Part shown: positions 1 through 23,559 of the stretch, one piece after another
Layout: every line of letters starts with the position of its first letter
How positions within the stretch are numbered: position 1 is the first letter of the stretch
Source of the DNA: Chrysochromulina tobinii
Taxonomy: Eukaryota > Haptophyta > Prymnesiales > Chrysochromulinaceae
NCBI GenBank assembly: GCA_001275005.1
Contig: JWZX01003395.1
Span: 1 to 25,158 of the forward strand
Direction of reading: 5' to 3'
Length of the DNA stretch: 25,158 bases
The notes under the pieces: model-generated
Database searches by the model: none
What the model saw: the letters and a program-made list of their open reading frames with translations, nothing else
What the model was told of the DNA's origin: nothing
Translations under genes and position numbers: made by a program

Positions 1-665
1 TCTTTGCTCAAGGACAACACTATGTCTTCTATCTCTCCTGCACCACAGGGGGAGGTGGGTCAGTCTCACTTATCACGCCATACTGGTTCGGGGTCCGATG
101 TTCGGGGTGAGCCTTCGGCTGCAGATGCAAGAGGTGTCCACGTGAGGCACTCGACGCTTCAGTCTGTTACTGCTACTACTACGACTCAGACCCAACCACA
201 CATGGTCCAGCCTTCACCGCGTACATCCCCTGGAGGTGTCACCGGCGCCGCTGGTCGTGATTTTGCGAACCAATCTGTCCCAATTTATGGTCTCGACTCT
301 CGTATGCCATCATCGGCCTCTTCGAAGGGCGTGACACATTCCCACGCCTACGCGACACCAGCTCCTCTTGCTTGTGCGTTTGGCAACTCTACGACGGGCA
401 CTGCCTCTGGCGCGCCACCCCCTACGACCGATGGCCTCGCATCGACTCGCCTGCAATTTCCCACCACTATCGCAAGCGAGCGTTCTTCGTCCATCACCTC
501 GCCATCTTCTCTCGGCACCCCGGCTTCGGCCACTTCGTTCAACATGGCCTCGGCCACCCCTTTCGTTCAGCGCACTGCGCAATCTGTTCCTGTCATCACT
601 ACTGATGGGGTCATCGCGACTCGTTTGCAATCTTTTGTCCCTGCAGCACGCGACAGCGGAGAGGT
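1..665 (+). CDS. N-terminal part of gag (or of a separate ORF upstream of gag), cut by an inversion
   Basis: The frame is open from base 1; the first ATG is at 22. The product is rich in Ser, Thr, Pro and Ala, without a recognisable domain and probably disordered. It contains a repeat of period 174 bp beginning at 445 and again at 619, each copy starting with a TTDG..TRLQ type motif. The second copy stops abruptly near 665, and its continuation is found on the opposite strand at 1372. The same frame stays open to 852, but 666-852 is antisense to better-looking coding sequence, so I end the coding segment at 665. I infer that this is the first part of one protein that continued through the inverted block into the frame starting at 1384. 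Confidence 0.55.
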
Positions 666-1356
666 CCATAGAGGGTTCAACGATAAGGTCACGGATAGCG
701 TCGAGCTGGCTAGGGGTAACCTCACAACAACCAGTTGGCCCAAGTGGATAGGCGCGAGCGCGAGCCGCATTGATGGCCTGAACAGTTTCGTGAACAACCT
801 CCTCTTGGATTGCCAAAAGGCGGGCAGCGCTCGGAGGGTTGGACAGAGTTGAGGACGCTAGTAACGAAGACTCAGTAGTAGGAGAGGCGGGGCGCCGAGC
901 AGGCGGCGTTGGGGGCAGGCGGCACGCTGCATCAGTAGTAGTAGAAGTGAAGGTAACGGGCAAAGCACACTCGCTTGCAATAGGGACAGCAGATTGCAGA
1001 CGAGTCGAAGTGTGTACAACTGGAGGCGGTTGAGGAGGTGCGGCCAAGACCGTGGTGTCGTGAAGGGTGCCACCGGGCCCATACCAAGGCATCCAGGACA
1101 GCTCGACAAGTTGGTCGTCTTCACGTGTATACCACTTACCAGTGCTCACTGAAAGGAGACGTCCATGCGTGTCCGCTAGCAGTGGGACAGACGTCTCAGG
1201 GCAAGTTTCGCCTGCAATGAGGATGAACCCTTCCAATAGCTTGGTAGCAAAGCGAGAAGAGAGTGACTGATTGGAATCGATTGTTGGTTGCGCAGTGCGC
1301 TGAACGAGAGGGGTGGCCGAGGCCAGATTGCCGAGAGAAGATGGCGAGGTGATGGA
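490..1356. repeat. Imperfect inverted repeat around the gag N-terminal inversion
   Basis: Bases 490-517 (28 nt) recur exactly in reverse complement at 1329-1356. Bases 546-582 (37 nt) recur with one mismatch in reverse complement at 1288-1324. The arms are separated by about 700 bp and are coding on opposite strands. Between its two blocks the plus copy carries an extra stretch of roughly 24-27 nt that is itself a partial duplication (ASAT-type residues). I interpret the arms as two units of what was a direct 174-bp-period repeat before inversion. Confidence 0.85.
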
Positions 1357-1372
1357 AGAGTCGGGCTCGAGC
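666..1372 (-). CDS. Inverted internal segment of the gag N-terminal region
   Basis: This minus-strand frame is open throughout and encodes sequence homologous to the plus-strand segment at 445-582, including the shared string SSITSPSSLG and a further TRLQ repeat near 1005. It ends in a helix-rich stretch (AIQEEVVHETVQAINAARAR) near 770-830. There is no ATG at its 5' end, and a stop lies just upstream at 1414-1416. Flipping 666-1372 between the inverted hexamers agaggt (660-665) and acctct (1373-1378) joins it in frame to the plus-strand segment on one side and to the frame of ATG 1384 on the other. As the window stands, the segment cannot be read as part of gag. Confidence 0.6.
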
Positions 1373-1383
1373 ACCTCTTCATC

Positions 1384-4132
1384 ATGTCCATCACTACGGA
1401 CGCCATGCTTCTCCTATTCCAACGCTATGGACCTCCGTTGCAGGATGTTGTGCGTGCTTTTGAGACCGGTAGGTGCGACATCAATTCACTCAAGGATTCG
1501 CTTATTGGTACGCACGCTACTTTCATACTTGATGGCTGCGACATGCCCCCCCCCCTGCCTCTTCTCGTTCCATCTGTTCCTCGTTCGCATCCTTAGCGAA
1601 GAGATGTTAGCAATTAACATGGGCGACGTACGTTCCTTGAACCTACGTGGCGTGCCCGATGATGCTTGGGACACTATTTTCGAGCGTGCACTGGATATCT
1701 GTTTGGACCACACTTCCGGAGTCGTCGTTCCCTATGGCTCTCGTACACCACACCGCAAGTCCATTTACGCGTCTGTCATGGCTGTCGTCCGACTCTCAAT
1801 TGATATGTACCATGCAGATACCGCGCGCCGAACACCACGTGCCCGCCCCGCCCCATGCTCCGCACGTTCCGAAGTGCGTGACACCGCACGTGCTGACGAT
1901 GTGCTGCTCGACGATGGGCGTGCCACGCGCGGACGTGACCCTGCCAGCGCTACCGCCCACCGTACTCCATCTGTCTCGTTCGACCTCCCGTCGGGGCGAC
2001 CCACCGCCGGGCGCACTGACGCACCACCTGTTTCGAGTTCGTCAACCGACTCTTCTCATCGTGATGCATATGAGCTTTCTGTCTCGCATCCTGCAGGCGC
2101 CTACCGTTTTCACGCTCATGGTACTCGTGCGACCCATGCCTCTGCACCAGGCACCGAGCCTATTGACGCCGAACCTGTTTCCGGTGCCCCCGGACTCGCG
2201 CCCACTGCTTCACCACTTCCAGAGCCACTTGTTTCCTCTGCTGAGTTTGACTCTCGAGTTGCTGCGGCTGTCGCTGCTCGGGTTGATGCGGCTGTCGCTA
2301 TGGCTTTTCGTGCTCGTGGTGTCTCGCCACCTCCAACAGGCTCCATTTCCCCTGACCGTGGTTCCCCTTTTGATGAGCCTCCCCCTTCACCCCCGCGTGG
2401 GCTCGATTTGAAGGGTCTGACTCTCGAGGTTGCTGTTCGCGAGTGCTTTGCCGATCAATTCATGACTCAACCCGCTTGGTACGGCTGCTCCCCTGCACCG
2501 GGTCGTGTGGACGGTTCGACCAGCTCGCCCGTCGCATGGTCGACCCTTCTACACCAAGTTTGTATCCAACTACTGAAGGGCCGTGAGTTCAACACGCGCT
2601 CCCAGACCTTCTCTAACCCCGTCTCTAAGTTCACGACTGACGTCAAACGTATCCTTAATGACCCGGAGTCTTACCGCCTCTGCCGTCCAAACCTTCACGA
2701 GGCCCTCGCCCGGTTGTATCTGACCAAGGGTGTGAACGACACTGCCACAAAGAAGGAAGCTACCCAGTATGTCATGCAACAACTCGAATCCGCCCTTCCT
2801 GAATCTCCACCGAAAGGGTGCTTGCATTACTCCCTGGACGAGATCCGGCGGTTCCTCTTGCATTCCATGTCCCATCGCGACGACACTGATGACGAGACTT
2901 CTACGTCCCTCATGCAATTTCTCCACATGCTCGACAACTATTACCTCTCGCAAACAGCCTCGGACCCGTACAATGAATTCTCTTCTATGCACTGGTTGCA
3001 CTCCGTCCCTTGGGTAGCATATGTCGTTGATCTCAAGCGGTTTGCTGAACGGCACCGATCCTTCCAGCGGCTGAACTCTTCTGGCCACAAGGGTTCCGCC
3101 CCGGTCAACATGGACTCTACCCAAGTATTCCTGCGTCAAATCGTCCAGACTCTCCAGCGGTGCATGGGTGAAGACGGTAATGATTCCGTCGCGGCCGAGC
3201 TTTTTACACTTTACTCGGCAACTCTTCTCAACCTTACTCCGCAACAACTGCTTGACGACCTGGAGAAACGCCCTAAGCTTAAGGAGGCTCACCGCTCGCC
3301 TGCGCGCAAAATTGCCGACCTTGCGCCTGCTGTGCCTGCGCCTCGACGCGCCGCTGCCGCCGCATACACGGAACATGGGACTACAGACCACGCTGATGTT
3401 GATGCTCTGCGTACTAACTGCGCGCGTTTACAGGCTGAAGTTGAGCGGTTGAGTGCTCTGACTCTGAAGAACCAGCCTCGCCCTGCGGATGCCGCGTCTT
3501 CACCCCCTCCGGGCGGCGGCGACGTCGATATCGATGTCTTCTTCGCTGGAGCTGGAACGGACGGGTTTGAGTTTCCTAAGTTCGGACCAGCCAAGCCTCT
3601 ACCCAGCGGCATGCGAATGTGTCTCGACGTGCCCAAAATTCAGCAAGCGGGTGTCCTCGCGGGTGTCGACTTTGGTGAGCTTTGGAATCGTAACCATAAG
3701 TTCGGCCTCGTCTCGCACCTCGAGTGTCCGATGTGCCCACGTCTTCCGTGGTTCGATAAATTCACAGAGTGCGTTGAGTACAAGGACCTCAAACAATTGT
3801 TGCCTAATCCAGACAAGGCTCCTTCCAAAACCAACAAGACCCCTGCGCACGTCACAACCTATCATTACAAATGGCAGTGCCAAGGTCTCAAGAGGTTCAT
3901 CAGTCAACATATCGAGACTCACCCTAACGACGCTTGGATGAAGACGCATATGGACGGCTCTGATGTTTATGCTCTCCTGCGCGCCTCCTACGACCGCCAA
4001 AAGGCTCAAGCGGCCGCGACGGCTGGAGAGGACAGAGTTCCGGGGACTCCTCGATCTGGACGACCTTCTCCAAAGGCCGCTACTCCGAAGCAGGCTAACA
4101 AGAACGATGGTGACCTGGACGATGACAATTGA
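1384..4132 (+). CDS. gag: Gag-like structural polyprotein (ORF1), probably with one intron
   Basis: The coding sequence begins at ATG 1384 if an intron at 1508-1610 is removed, or at ATG 1605 if gag starts there. Regions in order: a short helical N-terminus; a Pro/Ser/Thr/Asp-rich stretch (about 1810-2240); an Ala-rich helix from a 24-nt tandem repeat (2258-2305); a mostly helical capsid-like region (about 2400-3290); a short coiled coil near 3400-3460 (LRTNCARLQAEVERL); and a terminal Cys/His region near 3720-3940 with CPMC followed by H-x3-H (HIETH). No CCHC zinc knuckle is seen. The last codons are highly acidic and lysine-rich before TGA 4130-4132, which is in frame with ORF2. The capsid role rests on position, helical character and lack of enzyme motifs, not on a recognised family signature. 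Confidence 0.8.
1508..1610 (+). other. Candidate spliceosomal intron (or poly-C frameshift region) in gag
   Basis: The frame of ATG 1384 reads well to about 1507, then runs to TAG 1594-1596, while good coding resumes in the next frame at about 1605. Removing GT(1508)...AG(1610), 103 nt, joins the two in frame; the 5' site is GTACGC and the 3' half is pyrimidine-rich. A convincing branch site is not obvious. Two alternatives remain. A run of ten C at 1546-1555 could be a sequencing indel or slippage site. Or the upstream ORF may truly stop at 1596, with gag starting at ATG 1605, nine bases later. Confidence 0.4.
2258..2305 (+). repeat. Two-copy 24-nt tandem repeat in gag
   Basis: Two imperfect 24-nt units at 2258-2281 and 2282-2305 encode the alanine/arginine-rich string VAAAVAAR-VDAAVAMA, predicted to form a helix. 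The repeat keeps the reading frame. Confidence 0.7.
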
Positions 4133-4138
4133 CTTGTG
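4130..4138 (+). other. Putative stop-codon readthrough site between gag and ORF2
   Basis: ORF1 ends with AAT TGA (4127-4132) and the identical frame stays open from CTT 4133 to 10418. The first ATG in ORF2 falls well inside the USP domain, after the catalytic cysteine, so initiation there would destroy the enzyme. TGA followed by C is a known leaky context in eukaryotes, and several retroviruses use gag-pol readthrough. A weak downstream stem (about 4138-4142 with 4163-4167) is possible but not convincing. Non-AUG initiation at GTG 4136 or a small intron are alternatives. Confidence 0.65.
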
Positions 4139-7100
4139 GGGGAACCGGGTTGCGCTGATGGCTCCTCTGTGCATCTTCTTCCTCGAGCTCCTCGCCCTGC
4201 GCCGCCCTCTGTACCGTCTCGTGCCCCTGTTCCCGTTCCACTGCTGACGCCTGTGCCTTCCTCTCTGGCGCCTACGTCACATCCTTCACTCGCTCCATCA
4301 CCCGCCTCCGTGGTCACTTCTCTCCACGTTGGTCCAGGTTTCGTCAACACTAGTAGTACGTGCTACGTCAATGCGATCCTTCAGTGCCTTGTTCACGCAC
4401 CGCCGTTGGTATCCCTTCTCGCCACTGGCGAACATGTCCGTACCTGTCGCCTCCTTCGCCGTCCTGCCAAGGGTGCTAAGGGTGGTCGACCAGTCACTCT
4501 CTCCTCGGGGCGCGGTCGCCGTCATCCTGCTCCTCCTTCTCTGCCGCCTTTCTGCTCTGCTTGCGGTCTTGCTGGCATTCTCACCTGTCGTGCCGCGACC
4601 ATGGTGCCCTCTCTGTTTATCGACAATCTGAAGGCGTTCTCGACGTCTTTCACGCCTGGCCACCACGAAGATGCCCACGAGTTCTTCATCAGCGTGTTGG
4701 ATCATCTCAATCGCCATCGTAGCCTCGACACCGATACTTTTGTTGTTGGCGACGTCACTTTTGTCGACTCTGTGTTCGGCTGCTCGATCCATACGGTCTA
4801 TGAATGCCCGTGTTTGCATTCGCCAACGTATATCGAGCCGTCTTACGCCATCTCTCTCGGCCTTCGCCCGTGTATTGTTGACGCTCTTCGCGACTTCATG
4901 ACGGAATCCATCGAGTCCTATACGTGCTCTTTTTGCACTCGTTCTGGTTCTTGCGCTTCGCGTTCTTTCTTCGACCCTACCGCACTCCCTGCTGTGCTCA
5001 CTCTGCATCTCAAACGCTTTACCAATGACAGTCTGAAACTCACTACTCACGTTCAGTTCGATGAGACCCTCGACCTTAGTCCCTTCACTGTTGACCAAAC
5101 GACTGCACTCTATACCTTGTTTGCTGTGGTCGTTCACACTGGCGAGCGTCTTTCCAACGGGCACTTCTATACGTTTGCTCGTGCCCCTACGTCACCATCC
5201 CCCGCTGCACTTCCCTCGTCTTGGTATCGCTTCGACGATGCCAAGGTGCTACCCTCTACACTGACGACGGTCCTTTCCTCTACGGCGTACATGCTCTTCT
5301 ATGTTCGCATTTCTCCTGTCACGCCTCTCTGTCCACCTCTCGCGAGCGTCGCCCATGTCGGCGCGGACGTCCGTGCCGGAGAGGGGGGACACCCGGGGGG
5401 GACTCACGATCGCTTTTCGCAAGACAAACCTGCGTTTGACGAGGCTCAAGAAGCTCAGCCCGCTCGCAGTGACGCTATCGAACAGCAACAAATCAACGCA
5501 GCCATTTCAGCCTCCCTTCTTGAAGCTTCTCATCGTCCTCCTGCCTCTATTCAAGATCGACAGGGAGACAATTTAGCACGTACCGAGGTTCACAACGCGC
5601 CCAAGTCAGTGGAGCCGGCAGCCGTCACCGCACTCCCCGCTGGAATACCAGTGGTCAACAACGCTATTCTCGAGGCTACTTCCCAACCCTCGGGCGATTC
5701 CGAGCCTCAAGACAATCAACAGTGCGCCTCGTGCTGCGTATGTGGGCCATCCGAGGGACCTTTCCTTCACAGCTCTCTTCATGGCGGCCAACCACTAGTT
5801 GTTTGTACCAGAGCTGGCCTACCTTTGCCACCTCTCAGCTCGCGCCCACCCAGTGACTGTGAATCGTGCATTTCAGTCATACGCGAGACGACTCCTATGT
5901 TCAACAGCCTCGTGTTCTCTATCTCCAGTCCTCCTCCAGCTTCGGACGTCATCACCCTACGATGCGCTGCTACAGGATCCCCCGACGTCGATTCACTTGT
6001 TCTCGTTGAATCAGCTGAGTCGCCTCCAACTCGACGTGTTGTACACAAGTCGCTTCCTAACGGGCTCCCGTCTGTACCTCTGATGCTTCACGGGTCGATC
6101 AACCCTGTCTTTATGCCTTGGCCTCGCCCCGATGGAGAAGCAAGTGCCTGTGCCGTCCGTTCTTTCCGGCGTCGTTGGGCATCCAAGCCTACCCCTGCCC
6201 CTCTTCGTTACAGCAGCGCATCAGAGCTGGCGGACACTTTTCAGCGTCTTCTATCCCTCGAGGCCGAGGCGTCTGAGTCGGCCGCAGTTGATTCAGGCTT
6301 ATCCCAAGTAGCTGTTCAATGGGGACCGGGCCGAGACATTCGCCCGACAATTTATTTCCCCAACGCACTACCCAAGGATTTCAAGATTAACACTCGTGTC
6401 GTTGTCTCTCTTCAAGCCGCTAAGGGCTCCCGTCTGACCACCCTTCAGTCCAGCAAGGCATCTCGTTCCGGAACGGTTACCCACGTGGCACAGTCGCCCG
6501 TACCTATGGTGGGTGTCTCTCTCGACATCCCTGAGAAGACTGCCCCGTGGGAAGAGCACACGTGTGACTCGTCTACACGCTTCAGTATTTCCAAGGCGTG
6601 GCAATCTGTACCCCACGACCGTATGCTGGCCGCTCTCAGCAAATTCGCTCAAGCCCCTGGTGTCATTGGTACGAAACTTCGCGCTCTTCTTTTAGGGCAC
6701 CACTTACCTACTGTCCAGGCTTCTACTTCACCTCCGCTCCCAAATACCTTGAACACATCTCAACAGTCTGCTCTTCAACATAGCCTCTCGTCTGTCCTGA
6801 CTCTCATCCAAGGCCCACCTGGCACTGGCAAGACGGCTACGTCAGCTGAGATTGTTCGCAATTGGGTCGCCTTGGGGTATAGGGTTCTCGTCGTTGCACA
6901 GTCGAATTCGGCAGTCGACAACCTCACCCTCGCCATCTCGCGCCTGGGCGTCAGCCTCATTCGCCACTTCTCATCCAGCGGGCCACCTCCCGATTTCCCA
7001 TACGAACTCACAGCTGGGTACCATCTGGACACTAGTCCGTTCGCAGGCGACGACGACAAGAAAGCAGCAGAGCAGTTCGCGTGGTACCACAAGCTTTCGA

Positions 7101-10100
7101 AGGACGTTGAGTATTTAACGGAGACCGATCAGCTTCGTTACAGGATTCTTCTGAAGCGCGCTCTCTCTCTTGCGCTCAGCTCGGTACCTGTCGTCTGCTG
7201 TACGTGCTCCAGTGCCGCGGATCCTGCGCTTCAAGGCCGACACTTTGATTCCTGCCTTATGGACGAAGCCACTCAAGCGTTTGAACCTGAAGCGTACGTC
7301 CCACTTGTGTCCAGCGGTATCCAACGACTCGTTCTTGTTGGTGATCCAAAGCAGCTTGGTCCTGTCGTCACTAATCCTGCGGCTGCCGAGTCTGGACTGG
7401 GTACTTCTCTTTTCGAGCGCCTTCTCCTCTGTGGGTACCCTTTCACACTTCTCGACACCCAGTACCGCATGCACCCTTCGCTCGCCAAGTTTGCATCTCA
7501 GCAGTTCTATGACTCGCGCGTCGTCAGTGGTGTAGAAGCGAGTGATCGTCTACCAACTCCTGCATTCCCCTGGCCTGTTCCTACCGTACCGTGCTTCATC
7601 GCTGACACTCGTTGCCCAGAGTCTCACCAGCGCACTTCGTACGTCAATAAGGGAGAGGCAGACGTTGTTCTCCATGTTATACACGTTCTCCTCTCTACTG
7701 GTGTGAATGCTGCCGATGTATGCGTCATCACACTCTATGCAGCTCAAAAGGCACATTTGCGCCCCCTGGTGGATCAAGCTATGCAGGTTGACACCGTGGA
7801 CGCGTACCAAGGGCGTGAGTGTGACTACGTCATCATCTCACTAGTCAGGAGCAACGATAAGCACTCTATTGGGCATGGTAGCGATTCACGTCGGATGAAC
7901 GTCGCACTCACGCGTGCTCGCCGTGGTCTTGTCATAGTTGGCGATGTCCCCACGTTCTCCGAGTGCGCACTATGGCAGAACTTCTTCACAACGTTCAACT
8001 CTTGCATTGTCTCTACGTCTTCCTCGCCTTCTGGCGCTTTCTCGTTTGCACGCCCTTCGTCCACGTTCTTGACCTCAGTCGTAGCTGCCTCTGCACCCGT
8101 CACGCTCCAGCACTTTTGCCTCGCTTGGGACGGTCGTTATGATACTATGGATGCGACGGCACGCCTTCAAGTCGAGGATAGGCTGGTTCAAAAGTTGAAC
8201 CTCAATCGCCCCGCCCCTCTGTCCTTCGAAAAGAAGCCAATTGGATCTGTCTGGGAGTTTGCTCGTGATCTTCCCACTGGCCGTCGGCAGCTACATAACA
8301 CGCGTCTTGAGGACCTGTTGTTCGTACATTCGCAGGTGTTCAGGCCCCAAGTTCGCCTCACTCTACCCGAGCTACTCGTTTGTTGGCCACCGGGTAAGTA
8401 TTCCGGACTTCTACCCGCTACTGCATATGTTGCCCGCCGCTTTGGCAAGTCTACAGTCTACTACCTAGTGGTCGACACTCGACAGCCTGACATCCTTACA
8501 AGTCATGTGCGAGACCTCGTGTCCCTTCTCACCACTGTTGAAGCGCGCTGTCGTACTGAAGCCTTCACGGCTCCAACTCAGTCGTGTCTGTCCTGTGACG
8601 AGGAGTTCGACGACGAGTTTCGTCTTGCCTCTGACTCTGCTCTTGCTTATGTTGGATTCTCTTTGGACGATGCACCTGCTGGCATCTCACCGGACAAGTG
8701 GGCCCACGCGGCCACGCGTGTCGATGTACAGGGTGAGTTCCTACATGGGGCAAAGATCACGCGCTCACTCGCTGTTCGCGCTGAAGGGAGGAGAGGTCAC
8801 ACTTATCTCTTGGCTGCCATCAATTCTATACAGTGCTTTTGGCGTACGCGTATCGTCGGATACTATCAGTCTTCGCACGTGCGCACATACTGGAAGCTTG
8901 CTAACTCCCTACGCGGGCGGTGCGAGGCGTGGAATCTCCGCGATATCACAAAGGGTTGCAGCTCATGCCCCTTCTGTACTTTCCACGCTCTACGACTCTC
9001 CCGTCGGTGGGACATCCTTTGCGTCCCGTCACCGACGGATCCTTCTCTCTACGAGTTCAAAATTACCCTCACTGGCCGTCGTGTCAAAGCAGCGTGTAAT
9101 TCAGCACGCATGGCGTCTGCTGTTGCTGCTACTGCATCGGGTGGTCTTCTTCACCTTGCTTCGTTTCATACGTCTGCGGACCATTCGGCAGGTTACGTCT
9201 CTCTCCATCCTCGCAAGAGCTTCAAAGGCACCCTGTGCATGAAGTTTTGGCGCCGTACAGGCCATGCACCCACTGACTCTGCTAGCGCTGCTATACGCTC
9301 CGGATTTCTCATGTATCGTGCTGTCCGCCTCATGCGTTGTGGTTACGGCACTATGGCTTGCTATTTCCCGGTTCACTGTGCGGAGTCAGGTACAATCAGA
9401 CGGGTTACTCACATGGCCCACTCCAACGACTTCCGCGCGCAAGCAGCTGTTGCCCGTGAGGTCACTGACTGGTACAAAACGCGATACGTCTCCACACTTA
9501 AGGCCTCTCTTGATCCCCTTATTGTGTGTGGCTACTTCTCACCGGGAGGTCACGCCGATGGCGTCCGTCGTGCCGGTATCCATGCAGTCGGCATCGATCT
9601 TCAGGACAATATAAGCGAGGCGCGACGCTTCTTCGAGGATGTGATCCCAAACCGCGATCCACGCTCACCCGTTGTCACCTGCCACGGCGGTTCGGATGCG
9701 TTGAGCCAAGAAGTTCGCGACATGGCCGTTAAGGCGCACCCTCGCACGCAGGAAGTCATCGGTGACTTTGACACGCCACCGTGTCAGTTCTATAGCACAC
9801 TTCGTGCCCTTCCCGCTCGTACTCACGGTACCCCGTTACGCAGCGCACCACTCGGCCCGTCCCTTGCACTCAAGGCCACCATCTCGCTATGCCAAGCTCG
9901 GTATGAGAAACGAGTTCATCACTCGGTCCGAAGCGAACAAGGAATGTCATACTTCGTCGAGACTGTTTCTGGTGGCGCCGTCCAGTTGACCCCCGCTGTA
10001 GGTTGTGACCGTGTTCGAGGCATTGACTTTGGGCTGCCTTCGCACGATGAGCACCTCATCTACTTCCCCGCGAAACACCCTGTCATTATTGACAAACCCC

Positions 10101-13175: not shown

Positions 13176-16100
13176 GCGGTGACGAGTTCCGTCGCTTGCT
13201 GAAGCTAGGTGCTTGCCAATCTGTGAAGCCTCTTACCACCTCAGTGAAGGCAATTCGCGGAGTCACTGGACGCACGAGCATCACTCAGTGGGCTTCACTT
13301 ACCCTTAATTTGGGTGGATTGCTTGTACACCTCACTGATGTTCCTGTCATCGAGGGCCATCATGGCATCCTTCTTGGCAACGATGTACTTGGGAAAGGTA
13401 ACTGCAGGCAGTTCTACACCCCGAAATCACCTACTAGCGTGTACGATGGGTACTACCTGTTCACATCGGATGAAGGCCAAGTCATCTCTGAACCTGTCTC
13501 TTTCGTCTATCGGCGTTCCTCTGTTGACCGCTTTGTGAAGAAGAGTTTTATCGCTATGCCTATACCAGAAACTGATCCTGCTGAGATTGCTCGCATCGCA
13601 GAGGTGGAAGCTCGCACTGGATACAGTGCCACTGCCCGCGTCAATCCTAAGTTAACAGTCGGACCAGGTGGCACCATCTCTTTGTCCCTTAACGTTCTTC
13701 GACCCCTCACGTTCGAGGAGGAGTCTGCTATCAAAGGAGTAGCTCCTATCGCGTACACTGACAAGAGCATCGAAGTACCAGCCTGGAGTGAAAAGGATCT
13801 TTGGGTGCGTGTCCCATCGTGCTGTCCTAATGGAAGCCAAGTCGTCCTCATGCCACTCGACGACACCCGAGCGGCAGATCTTGGCGTCCTAGTTGCTTCG
13901 TCAGTTTCGACAGTCAACCATGAAGGATATGTGCGACTGCGCGTGATTAACCCCAACTTGCAAAGAGTACGTATCCCTCTCCTCTCCCCGATCGCGCGTT
14001 TCATAGTCGATCCTATCTTGCTTGGTCTGCACACGCCTTTCACCACCGAGGAGATTATGAAGAAAGTGAACATCAACCCGGCGCTCTCAGCAGCTGATGT
14101 CAAAGCTACTGAGTCGATGATCAGCAAGGTGAGGCGTCTGTTTCAAGAAAAGCTTGGATACGCTCATGGATATAAGTGCGTCATTCCCACTAGTCAGATC
14201 GACTCGGGTGAAGCCCCGCCGCCGAATCGACAACCGCGCAACCAGAGTATTGAAGAGGATGCGGCACTGAAAAAGACATTGGACAAGTTGGCCAAGGAAC
14301 GGATCATTGAACCGGCTCGCAGTCGCTTCAGCTCCGCGCCCCAGCTCATCCGTAAGCCCGACGGTACTTTTCGTGTTGTCCTGGACTTCCGCGACCTCAA
14401 CAAGTACACTGACAAAGATACGTATCCGCTCCCTAATCTCGAAGGGAACCTCGCTGCACTCGGTAAGGCCAACTGGTTCACTACTCTCGACCTCCTTCAG
14501 GGCTTTCATCAGATAGAGGTCGATGATGACAGCAAACACAAGACGGCCTTCACCACCAAATATGGTCAGTTTCAGTTTGCTCGTATGCCTATGGGTCTCA
14601 CGTCGTCACCAGGTACCTTCATGCGCATTGTGGACGCAACCTTGCGTGGTCTCCCGCCCCACATCGCCATCGCGTACATGGACGACGTCATTATCCCTAC
14701 TTGTGGTACGTACGAGGAGCACATGCGCGACGTCCAACGTGTGTTTGAACGCTTCATCGAGGCTGGCTTTGCTGTGCGCTGCGACAAGTGCTACATTGGC
14801 TACACTGAGGTCCCTTACTTGGGATTCAAGGTCGGCCAGCATGGTACTCGACCCATGGAAAACAAGACAGCTCCTATCCTGAGTATTAAGTGTGAAGACC
14901 TTGGCTTCGATGCAGCAGCCGCCCATCGTTATAGCGGCATGCTCGGGTTCTATCGAAAGTTCATCCCGAATCTCGGCCCTGCACTCGAACCGTTCGACAA
15001 GCTCAAACAAAAGGGTGCTGATGTCGAGAAGATCATGAGTTCACTCGTATTCAAGGCCTCTTTTGCGTACACTCAGCACGCTCTCGCTAACGTCGTCGCA
15101 CTTGCACGTCCGGACTCCAGCAAACCCTTCTACATCGACGTTGACGCGGCTTCGAGCTGTGGTATAGGCGCCGTCCTTAGCCAGCGTACCGACGAAAACG
15201 ACCCTACCTCCCACCGCCCTCTTGCGTGTTGGTCTCGCCGTTTCATCCCCGAAGAGACACGATATGGTGTTCGTGATCAAGAATGCCTTGCGTTACGTGA
15301 AGCGTGTATCCAATGGCGCCACTACATCTCGGGCGCGCGTACTATTGTGCGCTCTGACCACAGATCTCTGCAATGGCTTCTGTCAACCAAGCACCGTGAG
15401 GGCACTCGTGTCAATGGATACGCCCTCGACCTTCAGTCCTACGATATTGAGATCCAGTATGTGCCTGGTAAAGACCACCTTGTGCCTGACTGCTTATCGC
15501 GTCAAATTCCATTGCACCGCACTGAAGGAGGCAACTTCGAGTGCGGGGACTCGTCTCGCCCGCCTATTGCCGATCGACTTGAAGCGGCGCTTTGGGTGCG
15601 ACCCGTGGGGGACGAACCGGGGGGCCCTGTGCCTTCGCCTGTGCCTGTGCCTGTTCTTTCAATTTCCACGCCGCCATCATATCTCGAACAACTTCGATCC
15701 CACTCAGTACGGCGCGAGGCTCATCGTGTTGCTCTAGTCGTCCTCCAAGTCCAGGCTGCTAGAACTGAGTGCCTTCTTGAGCAGCGCGGCAGCGACCTTC
15801 AGTTCCCCGCTACGATGTACGATCCCAACTCTCGGTGCGATTATAGGTCTCAACTGCACGCGTACCTCTTTCGGGTCTACCCTCAATCACACTGGATTCA
15901 TCACGCATTGAAGGGCGCAGTCCCGCTCAAGCGCCGTCAAGGTGGTGGGTTAACACACTACTTCATCGCAGTCCTCCCACCGTCTTCTGTCTCTGGACTC
16001 GTGAGTGCTGTCCGCCTTATCAGCCACACGTCTTTCACCGATCTGAGTGGTGTATCGTCAGCATCTATGAGTGAGGTCGATGACTCTAAGATCCTCCGCC

Positions 16101-19100
16101 TTCTGAGTTCAACCCTTGAGCACGGCCACCCCCTACGTCGTCTTGGGTCTATAGCCACCCGTGTTAGCGACATTCGTGCCGAACTGCGAACGGTCGTCGA
16201 GCCAGTACAAACACTTGCCATCACTGTACCTCCTAGCATCCCTCGTCTCTCGACCTCTCCTCACGGTCCAGCCTTCTGCGACACCCTTACAGATATCGCA
16301 ACAGCTATGCAGATGCTCGATGAGCGTCTCAAGGCCTTTCCTACTCTCAGCATCTCTTTGGATCTCGAGGGCCGCCTCGGTGGTGCTCACCCTCACGTCG
16401 CCTTAACGCAAGTCTGTGTTGATGCTGTTGACGACGAGCACCCCGCTCTCATCTATGTCTTCGACACTCACTACTACGGTAATGCCGTCTTTGGACCGGG
16501 TAGCCCACTCCGCGCATTACTCGAGAACCCTGCCATAGTCAAGGTCATGCATTGCTGTCAAGGCGATGCCAGCTCACTCCAGATCGAACATTCTTTGGGT
16601 CTTCGCGGTCTATTTGACACGGGCATCGCTGACTCCTTAGCTCGATCTCTAATACCGAGTTCCAAGCGGGGGCTCAAGGTAGTACTTGAGTCTGTTCTTG
16701 GAGAAGGCGTAGTGCACATGCCGCATAAAGACGAAATGGAACACTTTGCAGCGAGCTACGGCCTCACTCACGCACAATTGTGGTCTCACCGTCCCTTGCC
16801 CTATACCGCCTTCGAATATGCCTATCAGGATACGACCTATTGCAACCGGGCTTACCTCCTGCTCCGTGCGAAGCTAACTGAACTTGGGCTTCTTGACTTG
16901 TGCTTCCAGCTCTCTACGCAGCAAACACTCGAGTTCCACAAGGCTCCGCCGCACACGCTCTATCGCCCCCCTGAGCGAGCTGTTTTCGCACTCACAGATG
17001 GGACGCACGTCGTTATGTTGCGCTCTCATACTGAGGTAGCTCATGCAGACCGAGTAACTATGGCCCTGCCCACAGCTGCTATCATCCCCCCAGGTAATTC
17101 TTCGGATCAATCGTGGGATCCCTTGTCTACGACGTGCCTCCTCAGTGGAGCGAAACGTGGCTGGGCCTCTGTGATGGGGGTACCCGTGAAGCCACTGACG
17201 CAAGCCATCAACTCGCACATGAAACCAGTTGTACGCATAGCTGACGCTCTACTTGTCATTTGCCGCGTCACCGACTGCCTTGCAGTACTCCCTTTGCTTG
17301 TCGATACACTCCCTACTCCTACGGCCGCCGCGAGCGAGGTTGTCCTTGGGAGCCTAGTTGGTGGTCCTCCCCCTTCTACCAACATGCACGACAAGCTCTG
17401 TTTCGACTACTTGCAGCTCTACGTACAGCAAAAATCCCGTTCTACATCAAGGGCCCTTATCACGTCTGCTTTTGTCTCTTCTATTTCGGACGCCTCTCAT
17501 TCTGCCGCTGAGGACGACCCACTCGTACCTGCTGCTGATTCCCCATCCGCTGTTTTGGTCGCGCGTTCCAGTTCCACCCGCCCTGTGGCTGCAACGATCA
17601 TCGTCCATGATGGTACTCTGGTGTACGCTCTCTCTGGTCCCAAGGCGGAGGACAGGTTATCGTTCCCTAGTCGCAACTTTGACAAGAGCCCTTCCCCGTC
17701 ATCTTCCGACCCCTCAGTGGATCAAGCAGAAGAGCTTTCTAGAGAGCTTTGGGACACTGCTAAGACCGCATTCGAAACCTTCGCCGGTAGCGCTCTCCTC
17801 AAGACAAGCAACAGCACGTCTCTGATGCCAAGCTTTGCCATCATGCCCCTCACTGGTGCTTACTTAAACAAGGCACTCAGCTTCGAATCGTGCACGGTCC
17901 TTGGCGACTTTGTTATCTCTCCGGATGGCACCGCAAAAGGTGGGTCGCTCACGCGTTATTTCGCCGTCTCAGTGTCATCTCTTCGCCGTTTCATTGGCAC
18001 CGAGCACGAGGCACGGGGTCTTGCAGCCTTGCACACTGACTTCTACGCCTCTCGCAAGTGTGGCTTTGAACTCACCCCTTCTCAACTTAAGAAGTATCCG
18101 TCTTGGGGATTCTATGACCTCAGACACACTGCACGCTTCGGGAAGGTCGACAGGGAGGCCTTATCCATTCTCGCTTTTAGCCTGCTCCCTCCCCTCAGCC
18201 CAATTGAACGCCCTTTGGGTGCCGACCCCGCGTTTGACGCACTCTTCGCGTCAGCCTTCTTTGTCTTCTTGGACTCTCCTGATCTCACCGAGGACGCTGT
18301 TCAGTCTCTCACTGTGGAAGCCTCTTCCTCACCTGAACTTCCCAACCTCGCGGCGATTCGGGAAGAGCAAGAGCGTCATCCTGCCACAGCACGCATTATT
18401 GACTGGCTCAAACTCGGAACCTATTCGGCCGCCTGGACTGACGGTACAGCCGCTGAACGGAATGAGTTAAGCAAGGAACCCTTTCATCTTGCCCCCTGTG
18501 GTACCCTCCTCTATGTTAATCCCACAATTGCGTCTGGTGGTCCTCGGTCTGGGGCTTCTCGCATCGTACTTCCCCCGCGTTACCAGGATGTCTTCCTTAA
18601 GTTGTGCCACGACAGGGCAGGTCATTTTGGAGTTCAGAAGACACTAGACCTCCTCCTCCAGCGCTTCCATTGGGGTAGTGATACTGACATGCGACGCTCT
18701 GTCAGTGAGTATGTCAAAACTTGCAATGCCTGTCAATTTGCCAAGGCCCCTCGTCACAATGCAAGCCCCGCGCAATCACCAGATAACGGTCACTTCCCCT
18801 TCGATGTTGTCGGTGTTGACGAATTCTCTGTGGGTGACGGTCGTGTGGTCGACAATTATGCAAGCTGCTTGGACTTCGCTGACTTCTTCACCCGGTATAT
18901 TGTCTCAGTTCCTATCGAGGGCACCCTCACGTCGGAAAAGGTGTATGATATCCTCCTGTCTCGCCTCATCCAAGTCCACGGGTGTCCCCGCGAGATACGC
19001 AGTGACCAGGCTCGTGTCCTCATCTCCGACGCTCTGAAACACCTCTACACGTCCCTAGGAATCTCGATGGAATTTGGTAGTGCCTATACGCACAACGTGG

Positions 19101-20500
19101 TTTCCATTGTCGAGCGCTGGCACGCTACCCTGAATCAAATGCTGCGAGTCCGTGATGTGGAAGACAAGGGCGTCAAGTGGTACAAGGCGCACCCCCTTTT
19201 GGTTCTTGCGTATAACGCTGCTACTCACGCTGTTTCAAAGTATTCCCCTTTCTTCCTGAACAACATGAGATCCGCTCGTCTCGGGCTTGACTCACTCTTC
19301 ATTGATGACGTATCGCTCCCGACTGATCTCTCTGAGTTTGTGGCCGCCCGTCTCCGCGAACGCCAAGTCGTTTGGGACGCGGCGAATCAGTCACTCCAGC
19401 TCAACTCCCTACATGCCAAGCAACGTCTCGATCTCGCACGTGTGACTGACATCTCATTTCAAGTCGGAGACTCTGTCTTAGTGATGCGTGGATCTTACTT
19501 CGACTCTAATGCCGTACATCCCAAGGCCGACGCTATCTTTGATGGACCGTATTGCGTCACACAAGTCCTACCGCATAACCGTTATACGCTCGAGACTGCG
19601 GGTGATTGCCGTGAGCTCGCTGAGCACGTTTCAGGGCGCCGCCTCATCCCGTATCATCCTAGGCATGACCTTTCAATCCAATATCAAGTTGATGGCCGAC
19701 CGTCCAGCCCCGACCAGCTTTACCCTGTTAAGTGCATCATTGATAGGCGTGTCACAAAACCACGCTCTAAACTGTGTGCGCTTATGGGTGCTTCACCGGA
19801 TGACAAGATCTTAGAGTACCGCGTGCGCTGGTTGGGGTTCAGTTCGTCGTATGACACTTGGCGCGCACGTTCAATGCTGACGTCCATCCAACCTCTGCTG
19901 AACGCTTATGATGCTAAACACCCTCTCCCCGCTACGTTTGGTGAACCTCCAGCACTCGCCCCACGAGTTTCTCCTGAACCTTTACCTGCTCCCCCTCCAA
20001 GATTTCAAGGCCGCTTCCGCCACCACCCTCCTACTCGTCTTCGTCCTGTCACTGAGGAATCTTCAAACGAGTTCGACAGTTCAACAATGCAGCCCGTACC
20101 TGTCGAATCCCCTCGCCCTGACCTGGAGTCACAGCCGGTTGAAGACACTCCGCTTCCCCCTCCCGTGGTTCATGGCCCCCCGTCAGCCCGTCTCGCTCGC
20201 CGTGCTGCTTCCGCCAAAGTACCTGGGACGTACTTCACCGAAGTTCAGTCTGACACGTGGTTACAAGCGGCGAAGGCTGAAGCTGAGTTTGACGCGTGGG
20301 TACGAGCGGAGGATGAACCCTCCGGAGAACTCAAGGATCTCATTGACAGGACCGCTACAGCTGTCGCGCATAAGGGAATCGAGTTCGAGGAATGGCTAAG
20401 GGCTAGGCACGCTAGGTTCCCTTTCTTGCACACCAACGGACATTACCATTCGTACTACTGCTCCAAGCTTGCTGAGCTCAGCAACACGGAAACCGCCTAA
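13109..20500 (+). CDS. pol: ORF4: protease, RT, RNase H, exonuclease, integrase, chromodomain (pol)
   Basis: The frame is open from 13109; residues are numbered from TTG 13196, where a conventional start-codon search would begin. I start at 13109 because the retropepsin active site lies upstream of 13196. Order: retropepsin (13139-13440); a beta-rich PR-RT linker typical of Ty3 pol (to about 14230); RT (14240-14960) with YMDD at residues 494-497; RNase H (15080-15510); an unassigned module (about residues 835-960); a DEDDy exonuclease (about 1050-1240); two further unassigned stretches (to about 1690); integrase (18580-19480); chromodomain (19700-19915); and a Pro-rich tail ending in a short helical segment. 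All catalytic residues I could check for RT, RNase H, exonuclease and integrase are present. Ordinary Ty3 pol is about half this length. Expression depends on recoding from ORF3. Confidence 0.96.
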   Translation, partial: WCEHTVRYSAGIPDGGSGTKLIGGDEFRRLLKLGACQSVKPLTTSVKAIRGVTGRTSITQWASLTLNLGGLLVHLTDVPVIEGHHGILLGNDVLGKGNCRQFYTPKSPTSVYDGYYLFTSDEGQVISEPVSFVYRRSSVDRFVKKSFIAMPIPETDPAEIARIAEVEARTGYSATARVNPKLTVGPGGTISLSLNVLRPLTFEEESAIKGVAPIAYTDKSIEVPAWSEKDLWVRVPSCCPNGSQVVLMPLDDTRAADLGVLVASSVSTVNHEGYVRLRVINPNLQRVRIPLLSPIARFIVDPILLGLHTPFTTEEIMKKVNINPALSAADVKATESMISKVRRLFQEKLGYAHGYKCVIPTSQIDSGEAPPPNRQPRNQSIEEDAALKKTLDKLAKERIIEPARSRFSSAPQLIRKPDGTFRVVLDFRDLNKYTDKDTYPLPNLEGNLAALGKANWFTTLDLLQGFHQIEVDDDSKHKTAFTTKYGQFQFARMPMGLTSSPGTFMRIVDATLRGLPPHIAIAYMDDVIIPTCGTYEEHMRDVQRVFERFIEAGFAVRCDKCYIGYTEVPYLGFKVGQHGTRPMENKTAPILSIKCEDLGFDAAAAHRYSGMLGFYRKFIPNLGPALEPFDKLKQKGADVEKIMSSLVFKASFAYTQHALANVVALARPDSSKPFYIDVDAASSCGIGAVLSQRTDENDPTSHRPLACWSRRFIPEETRYGVRDQECLALREACIQWRHYISGARTIVRSDHRSLQWLLSTKHREGTRVNGYALDLQSYDIEIQYVPGKDHLVPDCLSRQIPLHRTEGGNFECGDSSRPPIADRLEAALWVRPVGDEPGGPVPSPVPVPVLSISTPPSYLEQLRSHSVRREAHRVALVVLQVQAARTECLLEQRGSDLQFPATMYDPNSRCDYRSQLHAYLFRVYPQSHWIHHALKGAVPLKRRQGGGLTHYFIAVLPPSSVSGLVSAVRLISHTSFTDLSGVSSASMSEVDDSKILRLLSSTLEHGHPLRRLGSIATRVSDIRAELRTVVEPVQTLAITVPPSIPRLSTSPHGPAFCDTLTDIATAMQMLDERLKAFPTLSISLDLEGRLGGAHPHVALTQVCVDAVDDEHPALIYVFDTHYYGNAVFGPGSPLRALLENPAIVKVMHCCQGDASSLQIEHSLGLRGLFDTGIADSLARSLIPSSKRGLKVVLESVLGEGVVHMPHKDEMEHFAASYGLTHAQLWSHRPLPYTAFEYAYQDTTYCNRAYLLLRAKLTELGLLDLCFQLSTQQTLEFHKAPPHTLYRPPERAVFALTDGTHVVMLRSHTEVAHADRVTMALPTAAIIPPGNSSDQSWDPLSTTCLLSGAKRGWASVMGVPVKPLTQAINSHMKPVVRIADALLVICRVTDCLAVLPLLVDTLPTPTAAASEVVLGSLVGGPPPSTNMHDKLCFDYLQLYVQQKSRSTSRALITSAFVSSISDASHSAAEDDPLVPAADSPSAVLVARSSSTRPVAATIIVHDGTLVYALSGPKAEDRLSFPSRNFDKSPSPSSSDPSVDQAEELSRELWDTAKTAFETFAGSALLKTSNSTSLMPSFAIMPLTGAYLNKALSFESCTVLGDFVISPDGTAKGGSLTRYFAVSVSSLRRFIGTEHEARGLAALHTDFYASRKCGFELTPSQLKKYPSWGFYDLRHTARFGKVDREALSILAFSLLPPLSPIERPLGADPAFDALFASAFFVFLDSPDLTEDAVQSLTVEASSSPELPNLAAIREEQERHPATARIIDWLKLGTYSAAWTDGTAAERNELSKEPFHLAPCGTLLYVNPTIASGGPRSGASRIVLPPRYQDVFLKLCHDRAGHFGVQKTLDLLLQRFHWGSDTDMRRSVSEYVKTCNACQFAKAPRHNASPAQSPDNGHFPFDVVGVDEFSVGDGRVVDNYASCLDFADFFTRYIVSVPIEGTLTSEKVYDILLSRLIQVHGCPREIRSDQARVLISDALKHLYTSLGISMEFGSAYTHNVVSIVERWHATLNQMLRVRDVEDKGVKWYKAHPLLVLAYNAATHAVSKYSPFFLNNMRSARLGLDSLFIDDVSLPTDLSEFVAARLRERQVVWDAANQSLQLNSLHAKQRLDLARVTDISFQVGDSVLVMRGSYFDSNAVHPKADAIFDGPYCVTQVLPHNRYTLETAGDCRELAEHVSGRRLIPYHPRHDLSIQYQVDGRPSSPDQLYPVKCIIDRRVTKPRSKLCALMGASPDDKILEYRVRWLGFSSSYDTWRARSMLTSIQPLLNAYDAKHPLPATFGEPPALAPRVSPEPLPAPPPRFQGRFRHHPPTRLRPVTEESSNEFDSSTMQPVPVESPRPDLESQPVEDTPLPPPVVHGPPSARLARRAASAKVPGTYFTEVQSDTWLQAAKAEAEFDAWVRAEDEPSGELKDLIDRTATAVAHKGIEFEEWLRARHARFPFLHTNGHYHSYYCSKLAELSNTETA
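13139..13440 (+). other. Retropepsin-like aspartic protease domain
   Basis: Upstream of the first usual start codon the frame encodes PDGGSGTKLIGGDEF, matching the retropepsin active-site pattern D-[ST]-G-[AS] with Gly in place of Thr/Ser. About 70 residues later ILLGNDVL matches the second conserved retropepsin motif (hydrophobic-hydrophobic-G-x-D). It presumably processes the polyprotein. The DGGS variant is unusual, but the catalytic Asp is kept. Confidence 0.75.
14240..15510 (+). other. Reverse transcriptase and RNase H domains
   Basis: RT shows IEPARSRFSSAPQLIRKPDG, VVLDFRDLN, FTTLDLLQGFHQI (first catalytic Asp), ARMPMGLTSSPGTF, AYMDDVII (second and third Asp, 14675-14686) and YLGFKV, the usual Ty3 sequence of blocks. 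RNase H follows with FYIDVDAASS (Asp), RDQECLALREA (Glu), RSDHRSLQWLL (Asp) and a C-terminal VPDCLSR (Asp). Both enzymes look intact. YMDD is used where many Ty3 elements have YLDD, YIDD or YVDD. Confidence 0.97.
16340..16930 (+). other. DEDDy 3'-5' exonuclease domain (RNase D / EXD1-like)
   Basis: Exo I is SLDLEG (Asp 16361, Glu 16367; residues 1056 and 1058). YVFDTHYYG and the L..LL pattern follow. Exo II is VKVMHCCQGDASSL (Asp 16565, residue 1124), followed by GLFDTGIADSLARSL. Exo III is EYAYQDTTY with Tyr 1208 and Asp 1212 in Y-x3-D spacing. All four acidic residues and the Tyr are present. The wording around Exo II resembles the EXD1/Egalitarian and WRN-type branch rather than DnaQ-type proofreading subunits. 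The substrate (RNA or DNA) is not determined by sequence. Confidence 0.85.
18580..19480 (+). other. Integrase with HHCC zinc domain and DD35E core
   Basis: The zinc domain has His codons at 18608 and 18623 (H-x4-H) and Cys codons at 18722 and 18731 (C-x2-C). The core triad is Asp 18818 (GVDEF, residue 1875), Asp 19004 (RSDQA, residue 1937) and Glu 19112 (SIVERWH, residue 1973), with 61 residues between the aspartates and exactly 35 before the Glu. A GPY/F-like segment (DGPYCVTQVLPHNRYTL) follows near 19540-19590. Confidence 0.96.
19700..19915 (+). other. C-terminal chromodomain
   Basis: The sequence YPVKCIIDRR, then EYRVRWLGFSSSYDTW and LLNAY, follows the chromodomain layout: an opening aromatic strand, the E-Y-x-V-x-W-x-G-[FY] strand, x-x-T-W, and a closing helix. 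In chromoviruses this module steers integration to marked chromatin. Confidence 0.88.
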
Positions 20501-20504
20501 CCCT

Positions 20505-20591
20505 GTCGCGTGGCTCCAGCTTAGTAAGGCTCCATTCTCTTCATCTCGTGTGTTTCTTCCCCGTCGCGTGGCTCCAGCTTAGTAAGGCTCC
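20505..20591 (+). repeat. Two 29-bp direct repeats just after the ORF4 stop
   Basis: A 29-nt sequence beginning gtcgcgtggctccagcttag occurs identically at 20505-20533 and 20563-20591, period 58. It starts four bases after the TAA of ORF4. The core ccagcttagt recurs as the last ten bases of the window (25149-25158). The function is unknown; a transcript end signal, recombination footprint or start of an unseen tandem array are possibilities. Confidence 0.9.
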
Positions 20592-20620
20592 CACAGCCTA
20601 CTAGCCTCCCGCCATTGCGT

Positions 20621-20848: not shown

Positions 20849-20881
20849 CCCTGCTCTGCCAAACGCATTCGCGCTGAGTGA

Positions 20882-23317: not shown

Positions 23318-23559
23318 CGCGAGCCTCACGCCACCGCTGTGCCCCCCCTTCACTCCGATTCACTTGCGGAACTGGCGACTGCACGTATCCAGTATCAAGA
23401 CCGCTGCCTTCACGCCGCTGTGCTGCATGTGCTACAGTTGCTGGGCTGCTCGCATCACGTACGCAGTTCGCAGCTCCTCACCTGGCTCTCCGTCGCTCTT
23501 CTTTTCCGCGCTTGTCCAAGGACTTCGCTGTTTTCGACGCGTCGCCTCGCGTGATACAC

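What the first reader, a model, noticed from the sequence alone, without database searches (positions are those of the whole stretch)
1..20500. Giant Ty3 chromovirus carrying a deubiquitinase, a UPF1-like helicase, a C5 DNA methyltransferase and a DEDDy exonuclease
Seen: intact motifs of all these enzymes lie on one strand between or within gag and pol, with continuous reading frames and no gene boundaries. Known: LTR retrotransposons with a single captured enzyme exist, including C5 methyltransferases in some algal and dinoflagellate elements, but I know of none with this combination. Inferred: the element is a self-contained replicator with functions convergent on those of very large RNA viruses (SF1 helicase, exonuclease, methyltransferase).
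Basis: partly seen in the sequence, partly recalled or inferred. Interest (0 to 1): 0.95.

Follow-up and report, generated by a model that had tools for sequence, protein, structure and literature searches.

The report
Giant retrotransposon with many captured enzymes
This DNA is most of a very large jumping gene (a Ty3-type retrotransposon with over 19,000 bases of coding sequence) that carries, besides its copying enzymes, a ubiquitin-removing enzyme, an RNA-surveillance-type helicase and, inside the copying protein itself, a nucleic-acid-trimming enzyme whose active site is unchanged in all 32 relatives examined; it may show how such an element copies and protects an unusually long RNA.

Summary
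Plus-strand frames of 942, 2,095, 923 and 2,463 codons (1304-20500) encode gag (by position only), a USP deubiquitinase, a UPF1-type SF1 helicase, a methyltransferase-like region, an ASCH domain, and a Ty3 PR-RT-RNase H-[spacer-DEDDy exonuclease-two spacers]-integrase-chromodomain-SURP pol. It is not a chance join of host genes: 32 giant pols (31 of 87 hits with PF01612, plus one below cut-off) share the exonuclease; the RT tree puts them on one branch; in three other proteins or contigs the methyltransferase-like or ASCH region is joined to pol; five other UPF1-type polyproteins share parts of the layout. All five DEDDy residues are kept in 33 of 33 rows.

Corrections: the C5-methyltransferase call rests on motifs and failed profile tests; boundaries do exist (a TGA, a frame break, a -1 shift); the USP is so far known only from this element; no LTR, target duplication or host was found; 20500-25158 holds paralogous antisense ORFs.

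Giant multi-domain Ty3 elements (Burro) and retroelement DEDDy ORFs are known: a new variant, with an open proofreading question.

The parts
1304..4132 (+). Frame 1, 942 codons, presumed gag (first ATGs at 1352, 1427, 1445), ends in TGA
   Evidence: no Pfam domain above cut-off, no match among the 207 fetched proteins; gag by position only
4133..10420 (+). ORF2, 2,095 codons, in frame after the gag TGA; no ATG before 4601
4337..5302 (+). USP deubiquitinase domain (Cys box 4349-4369, His box 5159-5245)
   Evidence: Pfam UCH 1.7e-39; USP36 1.7e-31; coordinates
5720..5902 (+). Degenerate UPF1-like zinc-domain region (approximate)
   Evidence: By alignment only: Cys columns C378, C381, C423 of P0001 invariant in 6 of 6; Pfam PF09416 above cut-off in P0002, P0003, P0004, P0075, not in the window or P0079
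6746..7945 (+). UPF1-type SF1 helicase
   Evidence: AAA_11, AAA_12; tree; six motif patterns found in 6 of 6 proteins
9524..10372 (+). Methyltransferase-like region, C5-type motifs by eye
   Evidence: Family alignment; profile tests negative or inconclusive
10404..13175 (+). ORF3, 923 codons; one frame with ORF2 in P0001
11877..12236 (+). ASCH domain
13109..20500 (+). pol, 2,463 codons
13136..13498 (+). Retropepsin-like protease (by conserved columns; no Pfam hit)
   Evidence: D14 kept in 32 of 33 rows, one gap; G16 in 29 of 33
14216..15004 (+). Reverse transcriptase
15056..15508 (+). RNase H
15716..16228 (+). Spacer domain D1, unknown
   Evidence: Modelled fold; NUDIX kinship not supported
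16238..16939 (+). DEDDy 3'-5' exonuclease
   Evidence: Pfam 2.6e-11; all five residues in 33 of 33 rows; RNase D-like fold
16964..17506 (+). Spacer domain D2, homologous to D3
   Evidence: hhalign 96%
17576..18202 (+). Spacer domain D3
   Evidence: hhalign 96% with D2; no clear PDB hit
18572..19288 (+). Integrase, H2C2 zinc domain and DD35E core
   Evidence: Pfam (rve below cut-off); D1904, D1966, E2002 in 31 of 33 rows, 2 gaps
19727..19915 (+). Chromodomain
   Evidence: Pfam 28.5 bits, cut-off 25.1
20333..20476 (+). SURP (SWAP) module at the end of pol
   Evidence: Pfam 5.6e-10; in none of the precomputed lists of the 87 hits

Best explanation
It is most of the internal region of a giant Ty3/gypsy retrotransposon with a chromodomain integrase, from an unidentified eukaryote, and one member of a clade of such elements that share an exonuclease built into pol. 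SHOWN: domain order, conserved catalytic residues, the clade. INFERRED: gag is translated first. A fraction of ribosomes passes the gag TGA in frame (ORF2 has no ATG before its USP active site) and makes a gag-USP-helicase-MTase-like-ASCH polyprotein; a smaller fraction changes frame near 13109-13175 and adds PR-RT-RNase H-exonuclease-integrase. INFERRED function: the modules before pol protect and manage a very long RNA with an early stop codon that host UPF1 surveillance would attack (UPF1-like helicase as decoy or remodeller, RNA-linked ASCH domain, USP against ubiquitin-based removal). The RNase D-like exonuclease acts on 3' ends during reverse transcription, trimming RNA primers or mismatched or overhanging ends, so that a replicon with more than 19 kb of coding sequence can be copied. 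My probabilities: giant Ty3 element with these as its own modules 0.95; RNA-protection role of the modules before pol 0.4; exonuclease acting in reverse transcription 0.45.
For: Domains. Closest solved pol is Ty3. 31 of 87 pol hits carry PF01612, P0145 below cut-off; RT tree: the 31 rows with the exonuclease on one side of a branch, SH-aLRT 97. In 12 relatives scanned with Pfam the exonuclease lies after RNase H in 12 of 12 and before the integrase in 11 of 12; P0146 shows no integrase. DEDDy residues in 33 of 33 rows. MTase-like region fused to pol in P0142 (1.5e-22) and ASCH to PR-RT in P0156 (9e-17 and 9e-82); ASCH-ending ORF overlapping pol in L001. UPF1 grouping 100/99. First ORF2 ATG at 4601, past the Cys box. 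Retroviral RNAs are targets of UPF1-dependent decay, and MLV readthrough counters it (PMC10141005, passages).
Against: No LTR, primer site or target duplication. No stimulating RNA structure after the TGA (z 0.43) and no classical slip heptamer at the ORF3-pol overlap. The nearest folds of the exonuclease are RNA enzymes, and an RNA-binding protein (Egalitarian) scores highest. The exonuclease as a whole is less conserved than RT or integrase (67% against 92% and 81%, window against P0121). The helicase-to-pol link is direct only in the window; elsewhere it is transitive. The accessory set varies between members, so no single one except the exonuclease looks essential. No activity was tested.
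Confidence: 0.6

Rival explanations
1. A normal-sized Ty3 element lying beside or in host genes (USP, UPF1-like), joined by assembly; the enzymes are host genes.
For: The domains have cellular homologues: USP36-like and UPF1. The USP is in none of the five other ORF2-type proteins. No LTRs bound the unit.
Against: P0142 and P0156 fuse the upstream regions to pol in one protein; L001 has the ASCH-to-pol order; P0001 repeats ORF2-ORF3 on another contig; the frames run directly into each other.
Confidence: 0.03
2. A dead or domesticated copy: real giant element, but this copy has lost its ends and is decaying, or serves the host.
For: No LTRs; one frame break relative to P0001; antisense ORFs with different third-position GC close behind pol.
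Against: Open frames over about 19 kb and catalytic residues matching the family; P0001 is 99-99.9% identical without that break; P0121 is 68% identical over pol residues 12-2307. The break could as well be a sequencing error.
Confidence: 0.12
3. The modules before pol work for the host or against competing viruses (accessory-domain antiviral hypothesis), not in the element's own cycle.
For: Proposed for helicase and methylase domains of retrotransposons in PMC6338049 (parts 1-2 read); none of the modules is needed for a standard Ty3 cycle.
Against: They lie in frame after gag, so would be made with it; the layout is shared by relatives that are only 25-31% identical in this part.
Confidence: 0.12
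4. The exonuclease is only a structural or RNA-binding part of pol, or processes RNA, with no role in reverse transcription.
For: Top structural matches are RNA enzymes and Egalitarian; rotifer retroelement DEDDy ORFs were suggested to process RNA 3' ends (PMC5408684, passages).
Against: All five catalytic residues kept in 33 of 33 rows; placed between RNase H and integrase, so made with RT.
Confidence: 0.4

Closest known systems
Burro (GYPSM1) giant gypsy elements of planarians (PMC6431247; passages and section 7 read)
   Same: Gypsy pol, internal region up to 25 kb, very long polyprotein with several captured domains between gag and pol, some ubiquitin-related.
   Different: Burro carries MATH, BIR, BCL2-like, ankyrin, dUTPase and env-like parts; none of these was recognised here, and Burro has no exonuclease inside pol, UPF1-like helicase or USP in the text read.
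Rotifer Juno/Vesta LTR elements and Terminons with DEDDy ORFs (PMC5408684, passages; PMC6431247, passages)
   Same: RNase D-like DEDDy exonuclease carried by retroelements; Terminons reach 40 kb.
   Different: There a separate ORF3 with the motif changed to DEED, gained at least twice; here inside pol between RNase H and integrase, DEDDy intact in 33 of 33 rows. Terminons have Penelope-like RT.
KnitGypsy-Dnmt3 of Klebsormidium (PMC5890265, passages)
   Same: Cytosine methyltransferase in the pol of a Gypsy element; relatives P0135, P0137 and P0155 carry PF00145.
   Different: The window's methyltransferase-like region lies upstream of pol and is not proven to be a C5 enzyme; no helicase, USP or exonuclease in the passages seen.
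Insect retrotransposons with SF1 helicase (PMC6338049 parts 1-2; PMC5563155 passages; PMC4686597 listing only)
   Same: SF1 helicase translationally fused to retrotransposon proteins.
   Different: Those helicases come from plus-strand RNA viruses, mostly in LINEs; here the helicase groups with cellular UPF1.
Orchid Ty3/Gypsy elements with an m6A demethylase domain (PMC9289625, listing only)
   Same: RNA-modifying enzyme captured by a Ty3 element.
   Different: Single domain, another enzyme.
Ogre and Retand plant elements (PMC6431247, PMC11963269; passages)
   Same: Large elements; Retand has antisense ORFs between pol and the 3' LTR, like the antisense ORFs after pol here.
   Different: None of the enzymes found here is named in the passages seen; here it is unknown whether that region belongs to the element.

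Membership tests
Ty3/gypsy LTR retrotransposons (Metaviridae) | PR-RT-RNase H-integrase order with Ty3-like RT | tested here: met
   PR by conserved columns only
Ty3/gypsy LTR retrotransposons (Metaviridae) | Flanking LTRs and target-site duplication | tested here: inconclusive
   None inside the window; they may lie outside it; genome not searchable
Ty3/gypsy LTR retrotransposons (Metaviridae) | gag with capsid fold or zinc knuckle | tested here: inconclusive
   No Pfam gag domain; not folded
Chromoviruses | Chromodomain at the integrase C-terminus | tested here: met
   Pfam 28.5 bits over cut-off 25.1
Chromoviruses | RT inside the chromovirus clade | not tested
   No named reference chromoviruses were in the tree
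UPF1 helicases | SF1 motifs and grouping with UPF1 | tested here: met
   30 of 34 hand-picked sequences kept
UPF1 helicases | N-terminal zinc (CH) domain | tested here: inconclusive
   Not recognised in the window; above cut-off in 4 of 6 element proteins
DEDDy 3'-5' exonucleases (RNase D group) | D-E-D-Y-D catalytic residues | tested here: met
   33 of 33 rows
DEDDy 3'-5' exonucleases (RNase D group) | RNase D-like fold | tested here: met
USP deubiquitinases | USP domain with Cys and His boxes | tested here: met
   boxes read; the residues next to the Cys differ from the usual GNTCY (recalled), so activity is uncertain
C5 DNA methyltransferases | PF00145 domain or profile kinship | tested here: inconclusive
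   No Pfam match; hhalign 0.55% against 0.89% for the reversed control; motifs by eye only
ASCH domain | ASCH fold or profile kinship | tested here: met
Burro elements | MATH, BIR, BCL2-like, dUTPase or env parts | tested here: inconclusive
   None recognised by Pfam in the window frames; weak dUTPase (0.0037) in P0142 only; no Burro sequence was compared
Terminons | Penelope-like (Athena) RT | tested here: not met
   RT is Ty3-type and an integrase is present

The most novel reading that the evidence does not exclude
A clade of reverse-transcribing elements has acquired 3' proofreading: the DEDDy exonuclease, fixed between RNase H and integrase and invariant in its active site across 33 rows, removes misincorporated or damaged 3' ends during cDNA synthesis. 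This lets these elements escape the usual size limit of retroelements, as ExoN does for large nidoviruses, and accumulate a nidovirus-like kit (UPF1-type helicase; in relatives macro-like and NUDIX domains).
Probability: 0.15. Interest if true: 0.96.

Novelty: new variant of a known kind. Interest (0 to 1): 0.77.

Why it matters
Reverse transcriptases of retroelements and retroviruses are taken to lack 3' proofreading (recalled), and element size is thought to be limited by transcript length, RT processivity and packaging (PMC6431247, passage). A clade with a catalytically intact exonuclease fixed inside pol, in an element with over 19 kb of coding sequence, makes proofreading or 3'-end processing by a reverse-transcribing replicator directly testable. 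A UPF1-like helicase, with MLLE, NUDIX, DcpS-like, NADAR, macro-like and ASCH modules in the same clade or its helicase-bearing kin, points to an unexplored contest between giant retroelements and host RNA surveillance.

Tried and rejected
LTRs: direct repeats, terminal repeats and shared 12-mers between the ends: none in direct orientation (two inverted 12-mers only). A tRNA-primer-like stretch at 1242 (2 mismatches of 12) was dropped as possible chance. Readthrough structure after the gag TGA: no better than shuffles (z 0.43; 129 of 200 shuffles fold at least as well). Classical slip heptamers in 13096-13190: none.

NUDIX identity of the pol spacers D1-D3 was suspected by eye; hhalign against NUDIX domains of relatives (2-3 sequences) gave 0.04-0.51%, and a PDB profile of D3 gave 7 hits at E <= 5, none NUDIX. 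Unproven. D2-D3 kinship (96%) stands; D1-D2 (52%) and D1-D3 (26%) are weak.

C5 methyltransferase: left inconclusive. A macro domain in the window was not seen. In relatives, all 9 PDB hits of the profile at E <= 5 are macro-domain proteins by name or recall, best 4.6e-4, while Pfam found none in 7 members.

Structure of P0001 1388-2587: mean pLDDT 34.5, Foldseek without a hit at E <= 0.001; used only as a second look at ASCH.

A homologue search with P0001 1300-2700 returned only P0001, so at this distance relatives are missed; all homologue searches scored only about 7,990 candidates, and of 522 hits only 120 were listed. GTDB genomes gave L001-L003. Phage records: no match to ORF3. Codon-usage scoring did not separate the right frame from frame 3 for gag, ORF2 or ORF3, so it is not used as evidence of coding.

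Helicase tree: 34 proteins picked by hand out of 120 listed, 30 kept by a coverage filter. RT tree: 80 of 87 hits kept plus the window; P0147, P0156 and P0165 are among the 7 dropped for incomplete RT. Control against my reading: the exonuclease (67%) is less conserved than RT (92%) and integrase (81%) between window and P0121, close to its spacers (57-64%); its constancy is in the active site.

Literature: 10 searches in the PMC open library; no listed title or abstract start describes this combination; most listed papers were not read, and subscription papers are not held.

Full report
What is there. The plus strand holds four long open frames, 1304-4132, 4133-10420, 10404-13175 and 13109-20500, far longer than chance (longest run in 200 shuffles 406 codons). 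Pfam recognises a USP deubiquitinase and an SF1 helicase in the second, and RT, RNase H, a DEDDy exonuclease, the integrase zinc domain, a chromodomain and a SURP module above cut-off in the fourth; the integrase core is below its cut-off. By sequence the pol is closest to Ty3 Gag-Pol among solved structures (1.5e-79) and the USP to USP36 (1.7e-31). The first frame has no recognised domain and is gag by position only.

Boundaries. Gag ends in TGA at 4130-4132. ORF2 follows in the same frame, and its first ATG (4601) lies after the USP catalytic Cys box, so the whole USP domain can only be made by reading on from gag, by a non-ATG start, or from a spliced RNA. No stable RNA structure follows the TGA. 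ORF2 and ORF3 are in different frames in the window but one protein in P0001, which starts at ORF2 residue 157, is 99.9% and 99.0% identical to the two, and comes from a 24.7-kb contig; the break is a mutation or a sequencing error of this copy. From ORF3 to pol the frame changes by -1 within 13109-13175; no classical slip heptamer was found. In the distant relative L001 the corresponding ORF also overlaps pol in another frame.

The modules before pol belong to the element. Five further proteins, P0002, P0003, P0004, P0075 and P0079, combine a UPF1-type helicase with the MTase-like region (P0002, P0003, P0004) and/or the ASCH region (P0003, P0004, P0075, P0079) by BLAST against P0001. In P0142 the MTase-like region is in the same protein as the exonuclease-bearing pol, and in P0156 ASCH and PR-RT are in one protein. 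In L001, a 9.2-kb contig binned into a bacterial MAG and, I infer, a contaminant, an ASCH-ending ORF overlaps the pol ORF. The ends of P0002 and P0079 are homologous to the starts of several giant pols, a stretch whose profile hits only macro-domain proteins in the PDB (9 of 9 at E <= 5, best 4.6e-4; some labels recalled), although Pfam does not see it. The link from helicase to pol is thus direct in the window and transitive elsewhere.

Origin of the helicase. In a tree of 30 sequences (34 picked by hand from the 120 listed) the six element helicases and five of six UPF1-labelled proteins form a group (100/99) apart from SEN1, ZGRF1 and DNA2; the Symbiodinium 'Upf1' falls elsewhere. The element group itself has 84/58, so one capture is likely but not shown. 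Four of the six keep a Pfam UPF1 zinc domain; P0001/window and P0079 do not.

Changing accessories. Other proteins carry MLLE (P0003), NUDIX (P0079; P0122, P0150), DcpS_C (P0137), Skp1_POZ (P0140) and genuine C5 methylase (P0135, P0137) (P0155), and NADAR (P0144). The USP is in none of the five other helicase polyproteins, and SURP is in none of the precomputed lists of the 87 pol hits. The theme is mRNA ends, mRNA surveillance and nucleotide or ADP-ribose chemistry (family functions recalled), with some ubiquitin and DNA-methylation parts.

Ends. No LTR, target duplication or convincing primer site was found. After pol, 20500-25158 holds two minus-strand ORFs homologous to each other (28% over 309 aa, 1.6e-17), with third-position GC of 0.69-0.71 against 0.46 in pol and 0.54-0.57 in gag, ORF2 and ORF3. 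They may be host paralogues or antisense accessory ORFs as in Retand (PMC11963269, passages). The window's genome could not be searched: the genome search did not complete in 13 tries.

How it most likely works. Retroviral RNAs with a gag stop codon can trigger UPF1-dependent decay, and MLV readthrough counters it (PMC10141005, passages). An element whose gag stop is followed by more than 16 kb of coding sequence would be an extreme target, and it encodes a UPF1-like helicase past that stop. I infer a decoy or remodeller role for the helicase, RNA-linked work for ASCH and protection from ubiquitin-based removal by the USP, and that the exonuclease acts at 3' ends in reverse transcription, as trimming or, boldly, proofreading. 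None of this is shown.

Novelty. Giant gypsy elements with several captured domains are known (Burro; PMC6431247 section 7), as are DEDDy ORFs in rotifer retroelements (PMC5408684, passages), cytosine methyltransferases in Gypsy pol (PMC5890265, passages) and SF1 helicases in insect elements (PMC6338049 parts 1-2; PMC5563155, passages). What I did not find in the listings is a clade with the exonuclease inside pol, or UPF1-type helicase, USP and ASCH in one element. It is a new variant of a known kind.

Noticed in passing
window 21795-23231 and 23714-24670, minus strand: Two antisense ORFs (478 and 318 codons) homologous to each other (28% over 309 aa, 1.6e-17) with high third-position GC; no Pfam domain. 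Host paralogues or antisense accessory genes.
   Followed up: partly
window 487-582 and 1288-1359: Inverted repeats of 43-47 nt, 89-93% complementary, in the region before gag; the plus ORF 1-852 and the minus ORF 310-1413 encode similar stretches there.
   Followed up: no
window 20501-20591: 33-nt sequence repeated twice with 58-nt spacing just after the pol stop; its CAGCTTAGT core also stands at the very end of the window.
   Followed up: no
window 20333-20476: SURP (SWAP) splicing-factor module at the end of pol, absent from the sister P0121.
   Followed up: partly
window 16964-17506 and 17576-18202: Two domains after the exonuclease are homologous to each other (hhalign 96%); no known family found for D3.
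   Followed up: partly
L001 (PAAU01000079.1) 1-9219: A contig filed in a Micrococcales MAG encodes a eukaryote-type giant Ty3 pol: probable contamination of a public bacterial bin.
   Followed up: partly
L002, L003 (JALZUV01): Contigs in a Rickettsiales MAG encode Ty3 relatives at about 30% identity.
   Followed up: no
P0155, P0135, P0137: Genuine PF00145 methylase lies before pol in P0155 but after the chromodomain in P0135 and P0137, which suggests separate captures within the clade.
   Followed up: no
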